Source of the DNA: an uncultured Collinsella sp.
Lineage (GTDB): Bacteria > Actinomycetota > Coriobacteriia > Coriobacteriales > Coriobacteriaceae
Length of the DNA: 15,175 bases
Direction: 5' to 3'
Assembly (NCBI GenBank): GCA_905197385.1
Contig: CAJJYO010000013.1
Coordinates: forward strand, 1 to 15,175
How positions within the stretch are numbered: the stretch's first letter is position 1; each line of letters opens with the position of its first letter. The notes beneath the pieces are model-generated. The model saw only the letters and a program-made list of their open reading frames with translations, did no database searches and was not told where the DNA came from. Positions 1 to 10,101 of the stretch are shown here, piece by piece. The position numbers and the translations under genes were made by a program.

Positions 1-557
1 TTCAGACGTGATTTGACCATCTTCATTGACTCAAGCAGCTTCGTAACGCCCTCAAGTGCATAATACTCGCATTGGATCGGAATCAAAACGCTGTCTGCTG
101 CGGTCAAGGCGTTGATAGTAAGCAGGCCGAGCGAAGGGGGACAGTCAATGAAAATAAAATCGAACTCGTCCTGAATCGGCTCAAGCAAATCTTTGAGACG
201 GGTTTCACGAGCAATTGCGCTTACGAGTTCAATTTCCGCGCCTGCAAGCTGAATTGTAGCCGGAATTACGAATACCTTTTTGCAATTTGTATCAAGAACA
301 AGCGATTCTGCCGGCACATCATTCAACAATGCATCATAGATGCAGTGATCAAGGTCTTCTTTTTCAATTCCAAATCCGCTAGTGCTGTTTCCTTGCGGAT
401 CAAAATCGACAATCAGTGTCTTACGACCCTGCTCGCCCAGTGCCGCCGCAAGGTTTACAGCCGTCGTTGACTTACCAACGCCGCCTTTTTGATTGATAAT
501 TGCAATGATACGCGTGTCTTTTGCGCTCTTAGAACGCTTAACGTCGCGAAATCCCAC
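1..557 (-). CDS. parA: ParA/Soj chromosome-partitioning ATPase (partial, 3' end outside window)
   Basis: The N-terminal 185 residues are visible; about 70 would be missing compared with the usual length of roughly 255 for this family. ParA is a deviant-Walker ATPase that dimerises on DNA with ATP and works with ParB bound at parS to segregate origins. Visible motifs are the deviant Walker A KGGVGKST (residues 24-31), the Walker A' region DFDPQGNST (51-59) and Walker B FIFIDCPP (134-141). The start is GTG at 555-557, preceded by the Shine-Dalgarno AGGAGGG (561-567); a short lysine/arginine-rich leader (residues 1-15) precedes the ATPase fold. The parS sites just upstream support a chromosomal ParA rather than a plasmid relative or MinD. 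parB would be expected beyond the left edge but is not seen. Confidence 0.95.
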   Translation of the reverse strand, partial: MGFRDVKRSKSAKDTRIIAIINQKGGVGKSTTAVNLAAALGEQGRKTLIVDFDPQGNSTSGFGIEKEDLDHCIYDALLNDVPAESLVLDTNCKKVFVIPATIQLAGAEIELVSAIARETRLKDLLEPIQDEFDFIFIDCPPSLGLLTINALTAADSVLIPIQCEYYALEGVTKLLESMKMVKSRL

Positions 558-3520: not shown

Positions 3521-3655
3521 CTAGACAGTGAGACGCTTGCGGCCCTTGGCGCGACGACGGGCGAGCACGGCACGACCACCCTTAGTGGCCATACGGGCAC
3601 GGAAGCCATGGGTCTTGGCACGCTTACGCTTATTAGGCTGATACGTACGCTTCAT
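3521..3655 (-). CDS. rpmH: 50S ribosomal protein L34
   Basis: This is a 44-residue, strongly basic protein with the L34 sequence plan: [12 protein letters not shown] at the start, [13 protein letters not shown] in the middle and RRAKGRKRL near the end. L34 is a small protein of the large ribosomal subunit. The ATG at 3653-3655 is preceded by AGGAGG (3664-3669) at eight bases. The frame is open for another 20 codons upstream, but that part crosses the Shine-Dalgarno and a leader hairpin and is not coding. It is the first gene of the leftward operon. Confidence 0.97.
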
Positions 3656-3683
3656 CTTAAGTTCCTCCTGCTGCATTTCGAGT

Positions 3684-3701
3684 GTCCGCGGGGACGCGGA
3701 C
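3684..3701 (-). other. Hairpin in the rpmH leader
   Basis: A perfect 7-bp stem (GTCCGCG at 3684-3690, CGCGGAC at 3695-3701) with a 4-base loop lies between the rpmH promoter and its Shine-Dalgarno. No T-run follows on the minus strand, so it is not a terminator; it could affect mRNA stability or translation. Confidence 0.6.
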
Positions 3702-3727
3702 GCAGATATAGACACGTGAGCTTGAAG

Positions 3728-3757
3728 ATTGTAGGGAAATCAATGTTCAAATGTCAA
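3728..3757 (-). promoter_or_regulatory. rpmH operon promoter (primary sigma type)
   Basis: On the minus strand a perfect -35 TTGACA (3752-3757) is followed after 18 bp by TACAAT (3728-3733; 5 of 6 to consensus). Transcription should start near 3721, giving a leader of about 66 nt that contains the hairpin at 3684-3701. This is the clearest promoter in the window. Confidence 0.85.
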
Positions 3758-3854
3758 GAAATCAAAGGTAAAAGGTTGCGCAGTTCACACGGTTCCCCCA
3801 TAAGCCAAGCTCGATTTAGCGGCGCATGCCAACTTTTCACGATATTTCATCGAG

Positions 3855-3863
3855 TTTTCAACA
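3855..3863 (+). promoter_or_regulatory. DnaA box TTTTCAACA
   Basis: The nonamer TTTTCAACA is embedded in GAGTTTTCAACAGG. The same nonamer occurs four times in the window, at 3855, 3908, 5041 and (inverted) 7109, all around dnaA. It differs from the E. coli TTATCCACA at two positions. Confidence 0.8.
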
Positions 3864-3877
3864 GGTCATGTTGGCAA

Positions 3878-3886
3878 TGTTGAGAA
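3878..3886 (-). promoter_or_regulatory. DnaA box TTCTCAACA (inverted)
   Basis: Read on the minus strand this is AAGTTCTCAACA, one base different from the TTTTCAACA boxes on either side and in the opposite orientation. Confidence 0.65.
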
Positions 3887-3898
3887 CTTTTCGTCCGT

Positions 3899-3927
3899 TT
3901 TCCAAAGTTTTCAACAGGTTTTGGAAA
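3899..3927. repeat. Inverted repeat framing a DnaA box
   Basis: TTTCCAAA (3899-3906) and TTTGGAAA (3920-3927) form a perfect 8-bp inverted repeat. The box at 3908-3916 lies at its centre. Confidence 0.6.
3908..3916 (+). promoter_or_regulatory. DnaA box TTTTCAACA
   Basis: An exact copy of the nonamer in the fuller context AAAGTTTTCAACAGG, shared with the boxes at 5041 and (inverted) 7109. It lies 53 bp after the first plus-strand box. Confidence 0.8.
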
Positions 3928-4000
3928 GTTGTCGAAAGATGAGAAACATTGCACGGTGAGCTACTATTTGTTCGAAACCTTTTGGAAGATTGCGAGTGGC

Positions 4001-5353
4001 ATGTCTGACGACTTTTACACCATGGTCGATTCCGGAGACCCGGCACCCGACAACGAGCACATCACCGGCGTGCGCGAAGAGCGTGACGAAGGTGAACAGA
4101 CGACCACGCAGGGGCCGAAAGCCATGTACGCTGCGCGCATCGCCGTCTATGACGACATGTTGTCGACACCGCGTGTGATCGTCATTGATCCGCAAGATGT
4201 CCGCACGTATTTGGAAGAGACGACCAACACCGTCTACCAGTGCATGAAAGAACAAGGCGGCCATATCTCGCTCATGGTCATCCGCGAGATTGTCGAAAAC
4301 TTTATACACGCGCACTTTGCCGAGCCCATCATCTCGATTCTGGACGGCGGAGACACCATCCGCTTTGCCGATCAAGGACCAGGCATCGACGACAAGGAAC
4401 GCGCTTTCGACTTTGGCGTTACCAGCGCAAACAGCAAGATGAAGCGCTATATCCGTGGAACCGGAGCAGGGTTTCCCATGGTGCAGGAGTATTTGGAAAA
4501 CGCCGGCGGTGCCGTTTCCATCGAGGACAACATGGGCAACGGCACCGTGGTTACGGTAAGCCTGAACCCTAAACGCGTGCAGGAAATCGAGCGTGCCGGC
4601 GGACGCGGCGCTGCCGTGCGGCCCGAGACGGAACAGCCCACATATCCCCTGCCGGGAGCTTTTGCGCAGCAGCCCATGGCAGCGCAGCAGATGCAGCCCC
4701 CCGTGGGACAGATGCAGCAGCCCGGAATGCTACCCACACAAGAACCCCGGGCGGCATCGATGTCGATGCCGACAAACACGCCAGAGACCATGCCGCTGGC
4801 GGATCAGGATGCAGCAGCAATGCAGCAGGCGACGGGGGCGCCGGGTGGCCAGCAAATGGGCTATCAGCCGTACCAACAGGGATATCCATATCAGCAGATG
4901 CCGCCACTGGGGTATGGCCAGCAGTTCCCGCAGCAGTACCAGCAGGGATATCAGCAGCCGTACCAGCAGATGCCGCAGCAGCAGTACAACCCCTGGGCCC
5001 AGCAGATGCCTCCGCAGCCTTACCAACAGTGGCCTCAAAGTTTTCAACAGCAAATGCCGCCGATGCAGAGTTCTCAACAACCAGCAGCTCAAATGATGTA
5101 TCCTAATGCAGCAAATCAGTATGCGCAGCCACAACCGGACGTGTTCGTAAGCGATCGCGGCAACGCCGCGCTGGGCTATCTGGCGCAAAATCAAGCGTGC
5201 GGTGCAACCGATCTGGCGAGGGCGTTTGGAAACTCGGCCCCCACTTGGTCACGCACGCTCAATGACTTGGCGCAGGCCGGCTTGGTCATCAAGCATGGCC
5301 AGAAATACCATCTGACCGAACTCGGCGCCGCTCGCGTGCGAGCTCAGAGCTAA
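4001..5353 (+). CDS. Origin-linked GHKL ATPase-like protein with Gln-rich linker and winged-helix-like domain
   Basis: The function is unknown. The N-terminal half resembles a GHKL (histidine-kinase/anti-sigma type) ATP-binding domain: N-box REIVENFIHAHF (E96, N100, H103), G1 ADQGPGI (D124-G128), G2 GTGAGF (153-158) and G3 NGTVVTV (180-186). No phospho-accepting histidine domain, receiver domain or membrane helix is seen, so it is not a classical sensor kinase. Residues about 209-380 are low complexity; 271-379 contain no charged residue and are about one third glutamine, with many PYQQ and QQM units. The last 70 residues (381-450) resemble a winged-helix DNA-binding domain (helices around LGYLAQ, ATDLARAF and WSRTLNDLAQAGLV, then a KHGQKYHLTELG wing). 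I chose ATG 4001 (450 aa) because codon use is coding-like from there, although its ribosome-binding site is weak; ATG 4124 is the alternative. The stop is 15 bp before dnaA, so the two are likely cotranscribed. A role in initiation or dnaA control is inference. Confidence 0.8.
   Translation: MSDDFYTMVDSGDPAPDNEHITGVREERDEGEQTTTQGPKAMYAARIAVYDDMLSTPRVIVIDPQDVRTYLEETTNTVYQCMKEQGGHISLMVIREIVENFIHAHFAEPIISILDGGDTIRFADQGPGIDDKERAFDFGVTSANSKMKRYIRGTGAGFPMVQEYLENAGGAVSIEDNMGNGTVVTVSLNPKRVQEIERAGGRGAAVRPETEQPTYPLPGAFAQQPMAAQQMQPPVGQMQQPGMLPTQEPRAASMSMPTNTPETMPLADQDAAAMQQATGAPGGQQMGYQPYQQGYPYQQMPPLGYGQQFPQQYQQGYQQPYQQMPQQQYNPWAQQMPPQPYQQWPQSFQQQMPPMQSSQQPAAQMMYPNAANQYAQPQPDVFVSDRGNAALGYLAQNQACGATDLARAFGNSAPTWSRTLNDLAQAGLVIKHGQKYHLTELGAARVRAQS
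5041..5079 (+). promoter_or_regulatory. Two DnaA boxes inside the coding sequence
   Basis: TTTTCAACA (5041-5049) and TTCTCAACA (5071-5079) lie in the same orientation with starts 30 bp apart, inside the glutamine-rich part of the gene upstream of dnaA. They use AGT, TTT and CAA codons where the surrounding glutamine tract prefers CAG. A glutamine-rich protein raises the chance of CAACA arising by coding alone, so binding needs testing. Confidence 0.5.
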
Positions 5354-5368
5354 AGAACGGGAGAGACA

Positions 5369-7093
5369 GTGGACGAGGAAGCAAGCATCATCCTGGGGGA
5401 TGCCATCGCCTTTTGCCAGCGCGACGGCCAAGATGCACGCCTCATCAACATGCTGGGGCAATCGCGCGCCATAAGCCTGACCGAAGATACACTCACGATC
5501 GAGGCACCCTCGCGCTTTGCCATCGCGCAGCTCAAAAAGCATCAGCCGACTATTGAGGCCTATCTGGAAGAAATCGCCTTTGCGCCGATTGCGCTCGACA
5601 TCGTGGCACCGCAAGGCGCCGCGACGGAATCCGCTGCCACGACGGCGCCCGCCACGGCTCCCGCCGCTTCCCCGGCGGTGCCGGCCTCCGCAGGCGACGT
5701 ACCGACGATCGAGCACCAGCACAGCGATGTTTCCCGTGAAACCATGGCACCGTTGCCGACCGCGGCGGCGACGTCAACGAACGTACCCGTCACGCACATG
5801 CCCATCGCTCACGACGCAGCGGCGGGCGCGGATTCGGGCATTGCAATCAAAAACACGCTCTCGGCCGATGATTTTCGTCGCATGATGAACCAGATGAAGG
5901 GCGGAGCGCCGACTAAACCCACGCAAGTTGCGACCCCCGCTTCACCCATGCCAGCACCGACCGTGCCGGCCGAGCAGAATACGGATGGAGCCCCGCTCGC
6001 CGCGAACTCAAAATTTACCTTTGAGAACTTTGTCTACGGCCCCGAGAACAGCCATGCCTATCGCTCGGCACTCAAGTTTGCCGCCCTCGCGGACGAGCGC
6101 GGCACGTGCACATCACTGTTCATCTACGGCAAATCGGGCCTGGGCAAGACGCACCTGCTGCTCGCCATCAAAAACGAGCTCGCCGAAAAGTCGCCCGAGA
6201 TCAAGGTCAAGTATGCCAACTCCCAGGCATATCTGGACGACCTGATGACCGAGTTCGACCGTCAAAAGAAGAGCAACGCTCCCATCATGCAGGCGTACCA
6301 CGGCGTGGACGTGCTCATCATCGATGACATCCAAAACATCATCGGCAAGCGCGCGAGCGTGGACTACTTTTTCCAGCTCATGGACGAGTTCATCCGCAAC
6401 AACAAGAAGGTCGTCATCGCGGCAGACCGCGCCCCCAAGGACCTGAGCATGGACGAGCGTCTGACCAGCCGCTTCAACGCCGGCATGCTCTGCCTGGTCG
6501 CAGAGCCCAGCTACGAGATGAAATACAAGATCTTGCAGCGCTATTACGAAAACACCATCGTCGCCGCTCCCGAGGCAGGCGACGACTCGCTGCTGGCGGC
6601 CTATGGGGGCGACGGCGGACACCTGACCGACGAGCACTTTAAACACATGGCCGAGGTCTCGGGCACCAACATCCGCGAACTCGAGAGCTTTTGCGAGCGC
6701 TGCGCCGGCGAGGCGGGCGACCGCGAGCGCGAGGGCGGAGAGCTCACCTTTGACGATATCGACGCCATCGCCGGCCAGTACTTCGACACATCGGCCAAAA
6801 AGATCAACGTGCAAACGGTTCAGTCCGTCATCGAAGAGCAGTACGGCGTGACACACGAGGAGCTCATCGGCCCGCGTCGCAACGCCAATATCGCCAAAGC
6901 GCGCCATATCGCCATCTACCTGGCCATCGAGATGTGCGAGATGACGACCACGGCGGTGGGCGCCGAATTTGGCAACCGCAACCACTCGACCGTCAGCACG
7001 AGCTACAAAAAGGTCCAGAAGATGATCCAGGAAGACCGCACCGTCACCGAAGACCTCAAGTCGTTGCGCGATAAAATTACACTGCGTTCGTAG
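5369..7093 (+). CDS. dnaA: Chromosomal replication initiator DnaA
   Basis: DnaA is the AAA+ ATPase that binds DnaA boxes, melts oriC and recruits the helicase. Domain I is at about 1-80; domain II is a long alanine/proline/threonine-rich linker (about 80-210); domain III carries Walker A GKSGLGKT (254-261) and Walker B VLIIDDIQ. Domain IV ends in the signature VGAEFGNRNHSTV (530-542). At 574 residues it is longer than the E. coli protein (467), mostly because of the linker. In the signature, the usual GGRDHTTV is GNRNHSTV, so two residues of the base-reading triad (D433, H434, T435 in E. coli) become N538 and S540 while H539 is kept. The start is GTG 5369-5371, with GGAG-like bases (5359-5363) upstream and a gap of 15 bp to the preceding gene. 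The linker DNA also contains a degenerate parS. Confidence 0.97.
   Translation: MDEEASIILGDAIAFCQRDGQDARLINMLGQSRAISLTEDTLTIEAPSRFAIAQLKKHQPTIEAYLEEIAFAPIALDIVAPQGAATESAATTAPATAPAASPAVPASAGDVPTIEHQHSDVSRETMAPLPTAAATSTNVPVTHMPIAHDAAAGADSGIAIKNTLSADDFRRMMNQMKGGAPTKPTQVATPASPMPAPTVPAEQNTDGAPLAANSKFTFENFVYGPENSHAYRSALKFAALADERGTCTSLFIYGKSGLGKTHLLLAIKNELAEKSPEIKVKYANSQAYLDDLMTEFDRQKKSNAPIMQAYHGVDVLIIDDIQNIIGKRASVDYFFQLMDEFIRNNKKVVIAADRAPKDLSMDERLTSRFNAGMLCLVAEPSYEMKYKILQRYYENTIVAAPEAGDDSLLAAYGGDGGHLTDEHFKHMAEVSGTNIRELESFCERCAGEAGDREREGGELTFDDIDAIAGQYFDTSAKKINVQTVQSVIEEQYGVTHEELIGPRRNANIAKARHIAIYLAIEMCEMTTTAVGAEFGNRNHSTVSTSYKKVQKMIQEDRTVTEDLKSLRDKITLRS
5728..5743. promoter_or_regulatory. Degenerate parS inside dnaA
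   Basis: TGTTTCCCGTGAAACC matches parS at 14 of 16 positions, and at 13 of 14 over the inner GTTTCACGTGAAAC. Both outer half-sites, GTTTC and GAAAC, are intact; only one central base and the last base differ. It is read in the DnaA frame as VSRET (residues 121-125), in the variable linker where sequence is little constrained. Confidence 0.5.
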
Positions 7094-7108
7094 GGAAATA
7101 GAGACACC

Positions 7109-7128
7109 TGTTGAAAACTTGTCGAAAC
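7109..7128 (-). promoter_or_regulatory. Paired DnaA boxes downstream of dnaA
   Basis: A perfect inverted box (TGTTGAAAA, 7109-7117) is followed by a weaker one (TGTCGAAAC, 7120-7128). Their starts are 11 bp apart, about one helical turn. The first lies in the extended context AAGTTTTCAACAGGT on the minus strand. Confidence 0.75.
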
Positions 7129-7172
7129 CACGGGCATAAGGTGTCTAAAACCCAACCCGCGGTGATGAAAAG

Positions 7173-7199
7173 TTTTGAGCAGGTTTTGAACGTGGAAAA
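7173..7199. promoter_or_regulatory. Degenerate DnaA-box cluster
   Basis: TTTTGAGCA (7173-7181) and TTTTGAACG (7184-7192) each differ from TTTTCAACA at two positions and again start 11 bp apart. CGTGGAAAA (7191-7199) reads TTTTCCACG on the minus strand. These would be low-affinity sites if used. Confidence 0.4.
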
Positions 7200-7263
7200 C
7201 CACCCCCGTTGCACACAGGTTGCTGTCGATTCTCTTTCTGGGTCTGACCTGCGTCTTTGGGAG

Positions 7264-7313
7264 TAATCAACAGTTTCGTCAGTGCTATTACTATTATTAA
7301 GATATTTATATCT
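7264..7313. other. Candidate unwinding element: DnaA box, DnaA-trios and AT-rich palindrome
   Basis: TAATCAACA (7264-7272) is followed after 12 bp by five tandem triplets CTA TTA CTA TTA TTA (7285-7299). On the lower strand these read 3'-GAT AAT GAT AAT AAT-5', matching the DnaA-trio consensus 3'-(G/A)A(T/A)-5' in the orientation known from B. subtilis. The AT-rich palindrome AGATATTTATATCT (7300-7313) comes next. The order box, short spacer, trios, AT-rich DNA fits the basal unwinding system described for bacterial origins. Confidence 0.65.
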
Positions 7314-7331
7314 ATAGAAAGGTATTAAAAG

Positions 7332-8435
7332 ATGAAGTTCACCGTCAGCCAGAGCTCGCTTACACAAGCCATCGGCGTCGTTATGAAGGGTGTCGCTTCG
7401 GCATCCACCCTTCCCATCCTGTCGGGCGTGCTCGTCAAGGCGCAAGACGGCATTTTGGAATTCCAGACCTCTAACTACACCATCTCGATCCGTCATCGCA
7501 TCGCGGCGCATGTCGAAGAAGAGGGCGAGATGGTTATCCCCTGTAAGATGCTCTCCAATATCACCAAGACCCTCCCCGATGCCCCGGTCACCTTTGAGCT
7601 GTCCGAGCGCCAGGTGCTGATTGGTTGCGAGAAGAGCTCTTTTAGGCTGAACACGCTCGATGCCAATGACTTCCCCGAGTTTCCGGCCTATGCCATCGAG
7701 AGTGCCGTGGAGCTGCCGACCGATATCTTGTCCGAAATGGTCGGTCGCGTGTGGCGCGTCACCTCGACCGACAAGGCCCGCCCCATCCTGGGCGGCGTGC
7801 ACATGAAGGTCGAGAACAATACCGTGCGCCTGGTGGCGACCGATTCCTTCCGCTTGGCCGTGTGCGATACGCAGGTCGAGACCTCGACCCTCGAGGGTTC
7901 CTTTGAGCTCAACGTTCCGGCCGACGCCTTTAACGACGCGCTGAACATCATGGCCAGCCAGGCGACCATCATGATCGGGGCTACCGACACCCAGGTCGTC
8001 TTCGAGGCCGGCAACACCACCTACGTGTCGCGCCGCATCGAGGGCGTGTACCCCAACTACAAGCAGCTCATCCCCGATTCGTGCGTGACGAGCGTCAAGA
8101 TCGACGTCGCCGCCTTCAATGCCGCCCTCAAGCGTGTTGCCGTTATCGCGAGCGCCAACCCCGCCGTCAAGTTCGAGATCGACGTCGAGAACGGGCAGAT
8201 GGGCCTGTCTTCCATCTCCAACGACCAGGATCTGGCGCAGGAGACGATCGATGTCGAGGCCGAGGGCGAGTCGGGTACCATCGCCTTCAACTACCACTAC
8301 ATCTTCGGCTGCCTCAATGCCCTATCCAAGGAGAAGGAGATCACGCTGGAGCTCAAGAGCTACTCGCAGGCGGGCATCTTCAAGTCCTACGACAAGATCA
8401 ACTACCTGTACCTGGTCATGCCGGTCCGCATCTAG
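7332..8435 (+). CDS. dnaN: DNA polymerase III beta subunit (sliding clamp)
   Basis: DnaN forms the ring-shaped homodimer that tethers the replicative polymerase and other proteins to DNA. The protein has 367 residues, the normal length, with the N-terminal pattern MKFTVSQSSLTQAIGVVMKGV and the family block LPILSGVLV. The C-terminus YLYLVMPVRI corresponds to the usual MPMRL-type ending next to the partner-binding pocket. The ATG at 7332 follows AGAAAGG (7316-7322) at nine bases. The recF start is nine bases after its stop. Expression probably comes from read-through from dnaA or a promoter in the AT-rich spacer. Confidence 0.98.
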   Translation: MKFTVSQSSLTQAIGVVMKGVASASTLPILSGVLVKAQDGILEFQTSNYTISIRHRIAAHVEEEGEMVIPCKMLSNITKTLPDAPVTFELSERQVLIGCEKSSFRLNTLDANDFPEFPAYAIESAVELPTDILSEMVGRVWRVTSTDKARPILGGVHMKVENNTVRLVATDSFRLAVCDTQVETSTLEGSFELNVPADAFNDALNIMASQATIMIGATDTQVVFEAGNTTYVSRRIEGVYPNYKQLIPDSCVTSVKIDVAAFNAALKRVAVIASANPAVKFEIDVENGQMGLSSISNDQDLAQETIDVEAEGESGTIAFNYHYIFGCLNALSKEKEITLELKSYSQAGIFKSYDKINYLYLVMPVRI

Positions 8436-8444
8436 CGTTGCGCC

Positions 8445-9551
8445 ATGACCATGTTCGCCCGCGATCTTTCCGTCGCGCACTACCGCAGCTTCGATAGCTA
8501 TCGCCTTGCCCTAGACGACGGCGTGACGATACTTGCGGGACCCAACGCGGCGGGAAAGACCAATCTCATAGAGGCGCTGCAGCTGCTGACGAGCGGCGCC
8601 TCGTTTAGGCATCCGACCGCAGCCGAGCTCGTCCATGACGGCGTGGGCTCGTGCAAGGTCGAGCTGAGGCTCGAGGGCGACGGCCGCGTGCTTGATATGG
8701 GATTGAACGCGGAGGACGGTAAGCGCTCGTTTAGCCGCAACGGCAAGAGATGTTCTGCCGCCGGTGTGCGCGGGGTTCTGCCGAGCGTGCTGTTTTGCCC
8801 CGACCATCTGGACATGGTTAAGAGAGGCGCCAGTGTGCGCCGTGCCGCCCTCGATGACTTTGGCATGCAACTGAGCGCACGCTATGCCGATCTTGCGAGC
8901 ACCTATGGGCGCTGCGTGACCCAGCGCAACGCCCTGCTCAAGGAGACCTGGTGCTGCCGCGAGATGCTCGGCGCGTGGAACGATTCGATTGCCCGCGCGG
9001 GCTCGGCCCTGCTCGTGCACCGGTTGGCCCTACTCGACCGGCTGGCGGGCCATGTGCACACTGCCTACGGTCAAGTGGCACCCGGTGAGGCTGCCAACGT
9101 GACCTATACGTCCACGCTGGGGGATTTGCCCCAGGTCGAGGATCGCGAAGAGCTGAAGGGCTGGGCGTACGAGCGCATGCTGGCCGCACTTGATGAGCAC
9201 GCCGACGAGGAAATTCGCCGCGGCGTGACGTTGGTGGGACCGCATCGCGATGAGATTGAGTTTACCGTGGCGGGTCGCTCCGCCCGTTCATTTGCCAGCC
9301 AAGGTCAGCAGCGAACGTTGGTTCTGGCCTGGAAGGTGGCCGAGGTGGCCGTGGCTCGCGATGTCCTGGGCACCGCCCCATTGCTGCTTTTGGACGACGT
9401 GATGAGCGAACTCGACGGCGAACGCCGCGGCGCTTTTCTGCGGCTGATCGGCGATGATATCCAGACGGTCATAACCACGACCAACTTGGGGTACTTTACC
9501 GATGACCTGCTTGATCGAGCCAAGGTGGTGGGCATGGGTGAGACGTGCTAA
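8445..9551 (+). CDS. recF: DNA replication and repair protein RecF
   Basis: RecF is an ABC-type ATPase of the SMC-like class that helps load RecA at gapped DNA with RecO and RecR. Visible motifs are Walker A GPNAAGKT (32-39), the ABC signature SQGQQR (285-290), Walker B LLLLDD (313-318) and the D-loop SELD (321-324). At 368 residues it has the usual length. ATG 8445 has no clear Shine-Dalgarno but lies nine bases after dnaN, suggesting translational coupling. A second ATG two codons later is possible. The 3' end overlaps dciA by 14 bases. Confidence 0.97.
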   Translation: MTMFARDLSVAHYRSFDSYRLALDDGVTILAGPNAAGKTNLIEALQLLTSGASFRHPTAAELVHDGVGSCKVELRLEGDGRVLDMGLNAEDGKRSFSRNGKRCSAAGVRGVLPSVLFCPDHLDMVKRGASVRRAALDDFGMQLSARYADLASTYGRCVTQRNALLKETWCCREMLGAWNDSIARAGSALLVHRLALLDRLAGHVHTAYGQVAPGEAANVTYTSTLGDLPQVEDREELKGWAYERMLAALDEHADEEIRRGVTLVGPHRDEIEFTVAGRSARSFASQGQQRTLVLAWKVAEVAVARDVLGTAPLLLLDDVMSELDGERRGAFLRLIGDDIQTVITTTNLGYFTDDLLDRAKVVGMGETC

Positions 9552-10101
9552 TTACGAGCGCGAGAGCGAAACGGTTGCCTTCAGTGGATTTTTGAACGCA
9601 GAGCGTCAGCGCATCCTGGCGGCCGCGACGCCTGAGCGCCGCGCGCAGATGGAGGCTGCAGAGGAATCTCGCGCGGTCTATCGCGCGTGGAACGCGGTGT
9701 GCTCGGGCACGCGTGAGGGGCGGCATGTGACGGGCCTGCGCTACCTGCCCGAGTCCAATGAGCTGCTGGTATATCTCGATTCGCCCTCGTGGACGCAGGA
9801 AATGACGCTGTTGCGCGAGATCATCCGCGCGCGCATGGAGCGCGCCGGTGCGCATGTGGATGGCCTGGTGTTCAAAACCACCGCGCCCGGTCACACGCCG
9901 CCCGCCGCCAAGGAGCGCCTGCGTCCGGCGACGACCGGGCGCCCGCCGGCTCCGCACGCCGACCTCAGTGAGGCCGAGCGCGCCGAGATTGAGTGCCAAG
10001 TGGCGCCCATCGAAGACCAAAAACTGCGCGAGGCCCTCGAGAACGCCATGAGAGCCAGCGCCGAGTGGGCCAAGGGCGTGCAAAGCAAAAAAGAGCCTTA
10101 A
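9538..10101 (+). CDS. dciA: DciA-like replicative helicase loader/operator (DUF721)
   Basis: DciA is the widespread ancestral bacterial factor that assists loading of the DnaB helicase where DnaC/DnaI are absent. The DUF721 core runs from YRAWNAVCSG through TGLRYLPESNELLVYLDSPSWTQEMTLLREIIRARM to VDGLVFKT, roughly residues 45-115. The tail is alanine/proline/glutamate-rich and charged. I place the start at GTG 9538 (187 aa), inside the 3' end of recF, because AAGGTGG (9522-9528) lies nine bases upstream. The ATG at 9502 in the same frame lacks such a site. Its place between recF and gyrB is where actinobacterial dciA usually sits. An intrinsic terminator follows. Confidence 0.85.
   Translation: MRRANYERESETVAFSGFLNAERQRILAAATPERRAQMEAAEESRAVYRAWNAVCSGTREGRHVTGLRYLPESNELLVYLDSPSWTQEMTLLREIIRARMERAGAHVDGLVFKTTAPGHTPPAAKERLRPATTGRPPAPHADLSEAERAEIECQVAPIEDQKLREALENAMRASAEWAKGVQSKKEP

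What the first reader, a model, noticed from the sequence alone, without database searches (positions are those of the whole stretch)
4001..5353. Unusual GHKL ATPase, glutamine-rich linker and winged-helix protein embedded in the origin
A protein with an ATP-binding GHKL-like fold, no histidine phospho-acceptor, no membrane segment and a C-terminal winged-helix-like domain sits between the upstream DnaA boxes and dnaA, 15 bp before dnaA. Family knowledge: GHKL proteins of this type (for example SpoIIAB, RsbW) act as ATP-dependent switches by binding partners. A fused DNA-binding domain and origin location suggest an ATP-dependent regulator of initiation or dnaA transcription. That role is inference; this is the strongest candidate here for an undescribed system.
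Basis: partly seen in the sequence, partly recalled or inferred. Interest (0 to 1): 0.8.

Follow-up and report, generated by a model that had tools for sequence, protein, structure and literature searches.

The report
Conserved ATP-switch protein in dnaA operon
Right before the gene for the bacterial replication initiator DnaA sits a gene for a protein that joins an ATP-binding switch to a DNA-binding domain; I found no description of it, yet it keeps this place in bacteria of three phyla, so it probably helps to control when chromosomes are copied.

Summary
Window 4001-5353 (+) encodes a 450-aa protein with a GHKL ATP site (Pfam HATPase_c 1e-10), a disordered linker (30% Gln) and a C-terminal MarR-type winged helix, 15 bp before dnaA and between DnaA-box-like sites. 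One copy is found in each of 169 of 197 class genomes. Of 168 loci fetched (13 repeat a genome), dnaA is on the contig in 157 and lies directly downstream in all 157. The loci span the class, other parts of the phylum, Sysuimicrobiota (38 of 43 genomes match) and UBP13 (3 of 3). In 11 phylum genomes chosen for lacking it, dnaA stands without it. Six class genomes and at least one outside lost it but keep dnaA. The Gln-rich linker is lineage-specific; the two domains are the conserved protein. Best reading: an ATP-switched DNA-binding regulator, made with DnaA, acting on the dnaA promoter/origin. Folds and linkage are computed; ATP binding, DNA binding, target and sign of regulation are inferred. 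No change in DnaA tracks loss of the gene. Eight literature searches found no description.

The parts
4001..5353 (+). Gene of the dnaA-linked GHKL-winged-helix protein (450 aa)
   Evidence: one match each in 169 of 197 class genomes
4133..4600 (+). GHKL (Bergerat) ATPase domain with N-terminal beta hairpin, residues 45-200
4286..4300 (+). N-box E96-I-V-E-N100 (Mg/ATP binding, possible catalytic Glu)
   Evidence: E96, E99, N100 invariant in 59 aligned sequences, 96%, 96% and 100% in a wider 56; same spacing as GyrB in the window
4370..4384 (+). G1 box D124-Q-G-P-G128 (adenine contact)
   Evidence: D124, G126, P127, G128 invariant in 59 sequences
4457..4471 (+). G2 box G153-x-G155-x-G157 (ATP lid)
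   Evidence: three Gly invariant in 59 sequences
4622..5134 (+). Disordered linker, residues 208-378, Gln-rich over 226-378
   Evidence: AF2 block means 37-55; 46 Gln of 153 residues at 226-378; fast-evolving; short or absent in many relatives
5153..5347 (+). C-terminal MarR-type winged helix, residues 385-449, basic (pI 9.2 for 379-450)
   Evidence: Arg418 invariant in 59 sequences, Lys435 90% or more
5369..7093 (+). dnaA, 15 bp downstream, same strand
   Evidence: Pfam Bac_DnaA 1e-41, Bac_DnaA_C 9e-21
3855..3863 (+). DnaA-box-like TTTTCAACA upstream of the gene
   Evidence: exact match
3908..3916 (+). DnaA-box-like TTTTCAACA upstream of the gene
   Evidence: exact match
5041..5049 (+). DnaA-box-like TTTTCAACA inside the linker coding sequence (reads S-F-Q-Q)
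   Evidence: exact match
7109..7117 (-). DnaA-box-like TTTTCAACA between dnaA and dnaN
   Evidence: exact match
3521..3655 (-). rpmH, divergent left neighbour
   Evidence: named by reading; translation printed

Best explanation
A family of soluble GHKL-winged-helix proteins, for which I found no description, encoded directly before dnaA and probably in one transcription unit with it, inside the origin region. The GHKL half binds ATP (inferred from intact motifs); closing of its lid, and probably pairing of two subunits, changes how the two winged helices sit on DNA (inferred). The target is most likely the dnaA-operon promoter and/or the flanking origin, so the protein would tie ATP state to dnaA expression or to origin firing (inferred). 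Shown by computation: the two folds, conserved ATP-site residues, adjacency to dnaA over three phyla, one copy per genome, short or overlapping gene junction, DnaA boxes upstream of the gene in carriers (and on both sides in the window). Not shown: ATP binding, DNA binding, target, sign of regulation.
For: Adjacency, rechecked: class loci L061-L115, dnaA on the contig in 51 of 55, all 51 with its start within 205 bp after the gene (31 within 35 bp). Rest of phylum, L151-L183: dnaA in 27 of 33; in 5 others the contig ends 3-20 bases after the gene's stop; in 1 it ends 214 bases after. Named scan L184-L263: dnaA in 79 of 80. In all, 157 of 157 have dnaA downstream on the same strand; a start could be placed in 149, 148 of them within 205 bp, 108 within 35 bp, 25 at 0 or less, 16 at exactly -4; the 149th, L238, has dnaA split over two frames whose first part begins just after the gene; the 8 without a placed start have DnaA homology 11-71 bp after the gene. 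Thirteen of the 168 loci repeat a genome. In L070 and L103 the gene-dnaA pair is kept though the neighbours are inverted round it. Phylum of CSP1-3 (NCBI: Sysuimicrobiota) 38 of 43 genomes match, UBP13 3 of 3; adjacency there was seen in the loci. ATP residues conserved. Winged helix by AF2 (block means 91-98) and structure match. Purifying selection against L012: dN/dS about 0.02 (ATPase part) and 0.03 (winged helix). Upstream DnaA boxes: 505 TTATCCACA hits with up to 1 mismatch in 117 loci (6 of them repeats) against 11 in mononucleotide shuffles. Conserved promoter facing the gene, with CCTTGAAAA beginning 37-39 bp after the -10, in 22 of 27 distinct loci that also have the DnaA box: a candidate operator.
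Against: No DNA-binding or ATP assay. Six class genomes keep dnaA and lack the gene, and so does G230 (L272), whose genus otherwise carries it; DnaA can work without it. DnaA shows no convincing change in the six losers: 2 columns, both in one clade. The catalytic-type Glu is not universal: L107, for one, has Ser there. The candidate operator is found in one group of families, not in the window's family; nothing shows that this protein reads it. Arg418 and the wing Lys could be structural. In that group the promoter lies about 270-475 bp before the gene, so co-transcription with dnaA rests on spacing, not on a measured RNA; no plus-strand promoter was found in the window.
Confidence: 0.5

Rival explanations
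1. Protein-level DnaA regulator: the ATP-switched GHKL domain binds DnaA itself (as Soj, SirA, YabA or Hda do in other bacteria; recalled) and the winged helix only anchors the pair at the origin or mediates dimerisation.
For: Near-obligate pairing with dnaA, with 4-bp overlaps in 16 of 149 measured loci that suggest matched output; GHKL domains often act by partner binding (family knowledge).
Against: No DnaA column conserved in 46 carriers changes in more than one clade of the 6 losers; the winged helix is basic and conserved.
Confidence: 0.25
2. A transcription regulator of other genes (energy or cell cycle) whose place beside dnaA only gives it origin-proximal dosage and co-expression.
For: MarR/IclR-type winged helix; no own operator proven near the gene.
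Against: Pair stays together when the flanks are rearranged (L070, L103) and over three phyla; a conserved element lies at its own operon's promoter in one group.
Confidence: 0.15
3. A protein kinase of the SpoIIAB/RsbW or PDHK sort that phosphorylates DnaA or another partner.
For: GHKL fold, no DHp domain listed, Glu before Asn in the N-box; a branched-chain ketoacid dehydrogenase kinase is among the profile's PDB hits (3.6e-6).
Against: No anti-sigma kinase family among the 12 Pfam families listed or the 25 of 43 NCBIfam families shown; a fused DNA-binding domain is unusual for them (recalled).
Confidence: 0.05
4. An ordinary orphan histidine-kinase fragment or a decaying gene.
For: Best generic hits are histidine-kinase catalytic domains.
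Against: One copy per genome, purifying selection, conserved ATP residues and place; no DHp or sensor family among the 25 of 30 families shown for 58 members.
Confidence: 0.02

Closest known systems
DIP2311 of Corynebacterium diphtheriae (PDB 3lmm), a structural-genomics protein; recalled to be of the AlbA_2 / HATPase_c_4 kind
   Different: 14% identity; longer chain (477-556 residues seen); I know of no tie to dnaA and no known function.
Histidine-kinase catalytic (CA) domains such as HK853 and CpxA
   Same: Bergerat fold with N, G1 and G2 boxes; HATPase_c.
   Different: No DHp domain, sensor or membrane segment indicated; N-box has Glu four residues before Asn.
GyrB / MutL GHKL ATPases
   Same: N-box E-x-x-x-N, identical in spacing to the window's GyrB; MutL appears in the profile search (1.4e-4).
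   Different: No transducer or topoisomerase parts; a winged helix instead.
SpoIIAB / RsbW anti-sigma kinases
   Same: Small soluble GHKL proteins that act as ATP switches (family knowledge).
   Different: No winged helix (recalled); no HATPase_c_2 match was listed.
MarR / IclR-type winged-helix regulators
   Different: No GHKL domain in those families (recalled).
Known regulators of DnaA (Soj, SirA, YabA, Hda, DiaA, SeqA; recalled)
   Same: Presumed task: control of initiation.
   Different: None is recalled to be a GHKL protein or to be encoded in one unit with dnaA over several phyla.

Membership tests
GHKL ATPase superfamily | Bergerat fold with N, G1 and G2 boxes | tested here: met
GHKL ATPase superfamily | ATP binding or hydrolysis | not testable with these tools
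   needs purified protein
Sensor histidine kinase | DHp/HisKA domain with phospho-accepting His | tested here: not met
   no HisKA-type family among the 12 listed for the window protein or the 25 of 30 shown for 58 members
SpoIIAB/RsbW anti-sigma kinase | HATPase_c_2-type domain as the whole protein, sigma/anti-anti-sigma partners | tested here: inconclusive
   no HATPase_c_2 hit listed and a second domain is fused; partners not testable
GyrB/MutL ATPase | N-box catalytic Glu four residues before Asn | tested here: met
   E96xxxN100 in the window protein and 59 aligned sequences; not universal, 96% of 56
GyrB/MutL ATPase | transducer (S5-like) domain after the ATPase | tested here: not met
   ATPase part is followed by linker and winged helix
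MarR-type winged-helix DNA-binding protein | three helices and a beta wing | tested here: met
MarR-type winged-helix DNA-binding protein | specific DNA binding | not testable with these tools
   basic domain and invariant Arg418 only suggest it
AlbA_2/HATPase_c_4 (DIP2311 type) | N-terminal AlbA_2 domain | tested here: not met
   not among the 12 Pfam families listed up to E 1; no folded domain before residue 45
DnaA/initiation regulator | changes dnaA expression or origin firing | not testable with these tools
   genomic linkage only

The most novel reading that the evidence does not exclude
An ancient, origin-embedded ATP sensor: a GHKL-winged-helix protein made in fixed ratio with DnaA that gates dnaA expression and origin firing by ATP, shared by several classes of Actinomycetota, Sysuimicrobiota and UBP13, absent (perhaps lost) in other lineages of Actinomycetota, and perhaps the first GHKL protein in control of replication initiation.
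Probability: 0.4. Interest if true: 0.9.

Novelty: new variant of a known kind. Interest (0 to 1): 0.76.

Why it matters
How bacteria tie the start of replication to energy state is open in most phyla (recalled). Here is a protein with an ATP switch and a DNA-binding domain encoded beside the initiator gene in parts of Actinomycetota and two other phyla. If it regulates initiation, it adds a protein fold not used by the regulators I recall, and makes the question testable in organisms that can be grown.

Tried and rejected
Helicase loader: a DciA gene is present at 9502-10101 (PF05258 3.1e-6), so the protein need not fill that role. Defence gene: PADLOC matched only the winged helix, to CRISPR-linked regulators. 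Phage origin: no near match of 3700-5400 in the phage collection (megablast only). Pseudogene remnants between rpmH and dnaA in six loci without the gene: none found. DnaA changes tracking the gene: none convincing. RNA family in the window: none at Rfam's thresholds. Word and dyad search for a winged-helix operator over 117 upstream regions: no clear palindrome; the strongest signal other than DnaA boxes, CCTTGAAAA, holds in one group. I looked whether that promoter is lost with the gene: the loser L146 lacks it, but the carriers L089-L091 of the same family are not in the list of loci with it either, so this says nothing. sigma-70 scan of 3600-7400: one site, on the minus strand facing rpmH. 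Structure comparison with viral models gave mainly histidine kinases and small winged-helix proteins. In the structure lists I name only families that appeared; others (GyrB, SpoIIAB) are not excluded. Papers: eight searches gave listings with nothing on this gene; of two papers I saw passages only (PMC13270200; PMC4255298). Most subscription papers and all bioRxiv preprints are outside the library.

Full report
What is there. The window is a chromosomal origin region: rsmG, jag/khpB and yidC (Pfam), rnpA and rpmH (named by reading) on the minus strand, then on the plus strand the gene of interest, dnaA, dnaN, recF (by reading), a DciA gene, gyrB and gyrA (by reading). The gene runs 4001-5353, ends 15 bp before dnaA, and encodes 450 aa. 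Pfam finds HATPase_c at residues 93-189 (1e-10) and winged-helix families at 385-444, all below their cut-offs. AlphaFold2 on the window protein gives two domains and a disordered linker (mean pLDDT 66); on a compact homologue (L230, 266 aa) the mean is 86.6 and the winged helix 91-98 by blocks. E96, E99, N100, D124, G126, P127, G128, G153, G155 and G157 are invariant in 59 aligned sequences. A wider set is a little looser: E96 and E99 in 96% of 56, N100 in all; a distant member, L107, has Ser at the E96 place. All 58 members scanned match HATPase_c; 44 match HVO_A0261_N and 38 HTH_IclR at E 0.01 or better.

It asked whether the gene is absent from this place in relatives. Among 39 relatives, 36 had a match at 1e-3, four of them only weak ones (4e-5 to 5e-6) that look like kinases. 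In the class 169 of 197 genomes match at 1e-15, one match each. I took 27 genomes without a family match (20 of the 28 misses, the other 8 not being listed, and 7) and searched for dnaA: 20 lack a dnaA match too, so their origin is missing or diverged; 7 have dnaA. Of these 7, one contig starts inside dnaA (G126) and six show rpmH beside dnaA with no such gene and no remnant (G184, G064, G095, G056, G045, G048). So the gene is usual but has been lost several times.

Place. In 55 class loci dnaA is on the contig in 51 and in all 51 starts within 205 bp after the gene. Two members (L070, L103) have the neighbourhood rearranged and the pair stays together. A profile search over 396 genomes drawn from the phylum gave 182 at 1e-8; leaving out 25 between 1e-8 and 4e-11, which look like generic kinases, 157 remain at 1e-20 or better (hand count; class members included). 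Of 33 loci from families outside the class, 27 have dnaA next, in 5 the contig ends 3-20 bases after the stop codon, as when a circular record is opened at dnaA, and in 1 it ends 214 bases after (one search had missed the short dnaA piece of L174). Its record titles include Candidatus Aquicultor, Oleimmundimicrobium, Coriobacteriia, Anaerosomatales, Thermoleophilia, UBP13, and CSP1-3 and ANGP1, which NCBI places in Sysuimicrobiota; some titles (Slackia, Aeromicrobium, Nitrosymbiomonas, Bacillota, Clostridia) may be misnamed MAGs. Thirteen of the 80 repeat genomes already held. dnaA is in view in 79 and lies downstream on the same strand in all. My automatic rule passed 76; L215 and L259 failed it through overlapping reading frames, and L238 because its dnaA is split over two frames, the first part beginning just after the gene. 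In all, 157 of 157 loci with dnaA show it directly downstream; a start could be placed in 149: 108 within 35 bp, 25 at 0 or less, 16 at exactly -4; start choice is automatic. Matches: phylum of CSP1-3, 38 of 43 genomes; UBP13, 3 of 3.

Controls. I searched for dnaA in 14 genomes of the phylum without a good match: 11 have dnaA and none of these has the gene in the stretch fetched; rpmH was seen beside dnaA in 10, and in 1 the contig starts before it. One of the 11, G230, belongs to a genus whose other member searched carries the gene, so it is a further loss. The other 3 lack dnaA, so their lack of the gene means nothing.

Descent. Over 123 loci, pairwise distances of the protein and of DnaA correlate (r 0.68). 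The Sysuimicrobiota loci on my list that had data (13 of 13) and those of the window's order (23 of 23) form clean clades in both trees. The class L061-L115 as a whole does not: in the protein tree the best group has its 48 loci with 19 others, in the DnaA tree 40 of 48 with 2 others; f42 and f43 group in part, 4 of 6. This fits old vertical descent without proving it.

Promoter. Upstream DnaA boxes abound: 505 TTATCCACA hits with up to one mismatch in 117 loci (6 repeats), 11 in shuffles; in 13 loci of families f1, f3 and f5 the TTTTCAACA form gives 47 against 2.3. In one group of families around Anaerosomatales a promoter facing the gene is conserved: DnaA box, TTGTTG-like hexamer, extended -10 TGnTAGAAT, then CCTTGAAAA beginning 37-39 bp after it. 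Of 38 loci with the -10 motif (32 distinct), 27 (22 distinct) carry the element with up to one mismatch, against 0.5% in shuffles; where a DnaA box precedes, 22 of 27 distinct. It is a candidate operator; nothing here shows what reads it. It is not seen in the window.

Selection. Between the window and L012, dN and dS are 0.014 and 0.707 in the ATPase part, 0.025 and 0.74 in the winged helix, 0.176 and 1.087 in the linker. In six farther pairs dS is high or beyond measure, and dN of the winged helix (0.43-0.56) is well above that of the ATPase part (0.11-0.18). The linker varies in length and make-up: Gln-rich in the window's family and some others, 0-30 residues in many by a crude cut.

How it may work. 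I commit to an ATP-switched DNA-binding regulator acting on the dnaA operon and origin, at 0.5. The main rival is a direct DnaA partner, at 0.25. Against a tight DnaA contact: no DnaA column conserved in 46 carriers changes in more than one clade among the 6 losers. Against an indispensable role: the losses themselves. The mended counts did not call for other odds.

Novelty. The domains are known; the family, its tie to dnaA and its spread are not described in the papers I could search (listings; passages of two papers). I therefore call it a new variant of a known kind, with a bolder reading left open.

Noticed in passing
window 3855, 3908, 5041, 7109 and loci: The DnaA box seems to have changed together with DnaA's DNA-reading loop: 37 loci with FGGRDHTTV have mostly TTATCCACA upstream (exact 45 against 6 TTTTCAACA), while 10 loci with FGGR(S/T/K)HAT(V/I) have TTTTCAACA (exact 10 against 0). 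Exceptions: L165, L166 and L062 keep the Asp (RDHATV) but have TTTTCAACA; 23 loci did not fit the motif search. The window has TTTTCAACA and GNRNHSTV.
   Followed up: partly
L081-L108 and L200-L263, about 270-475 bp before the gene: Conserved promoter flanked by DnaA boxes, with a CCTTGAAAA element beginning 37-39 bp after the -10 (22 of 27 distinct loci with box); reader unknown.
   Followed up: partly
window 5041-5049: An exact DnaA-box-like word lies inside the linker coding sequence; it is kept in L001-L013 (13 of 13) and seen in the linkers of L020 and L023, but not in the 8 other congeners examined.
   Followed up: partly
window 9502-10101 (+): Helicase-loader gene dciA between recF and gyrB (PF05258 3.1e-6).
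   Followed up: no
L070 and L103: The gene-dnaA pair is inverted relative to dnaN, gyrB and the rpmH side, which splits the usual dnaA-dnaN order.
   Followed up: no
L238 and L239: dnaA is split over two reading frames in these two Sysuimicrobiota MAGs; sequencing error or real is not known.
   Followed up: no
window 72-470 (+): An ORF of 132 aa with no Pfam match at 0.01; probably not a gene.
   Followed up: no
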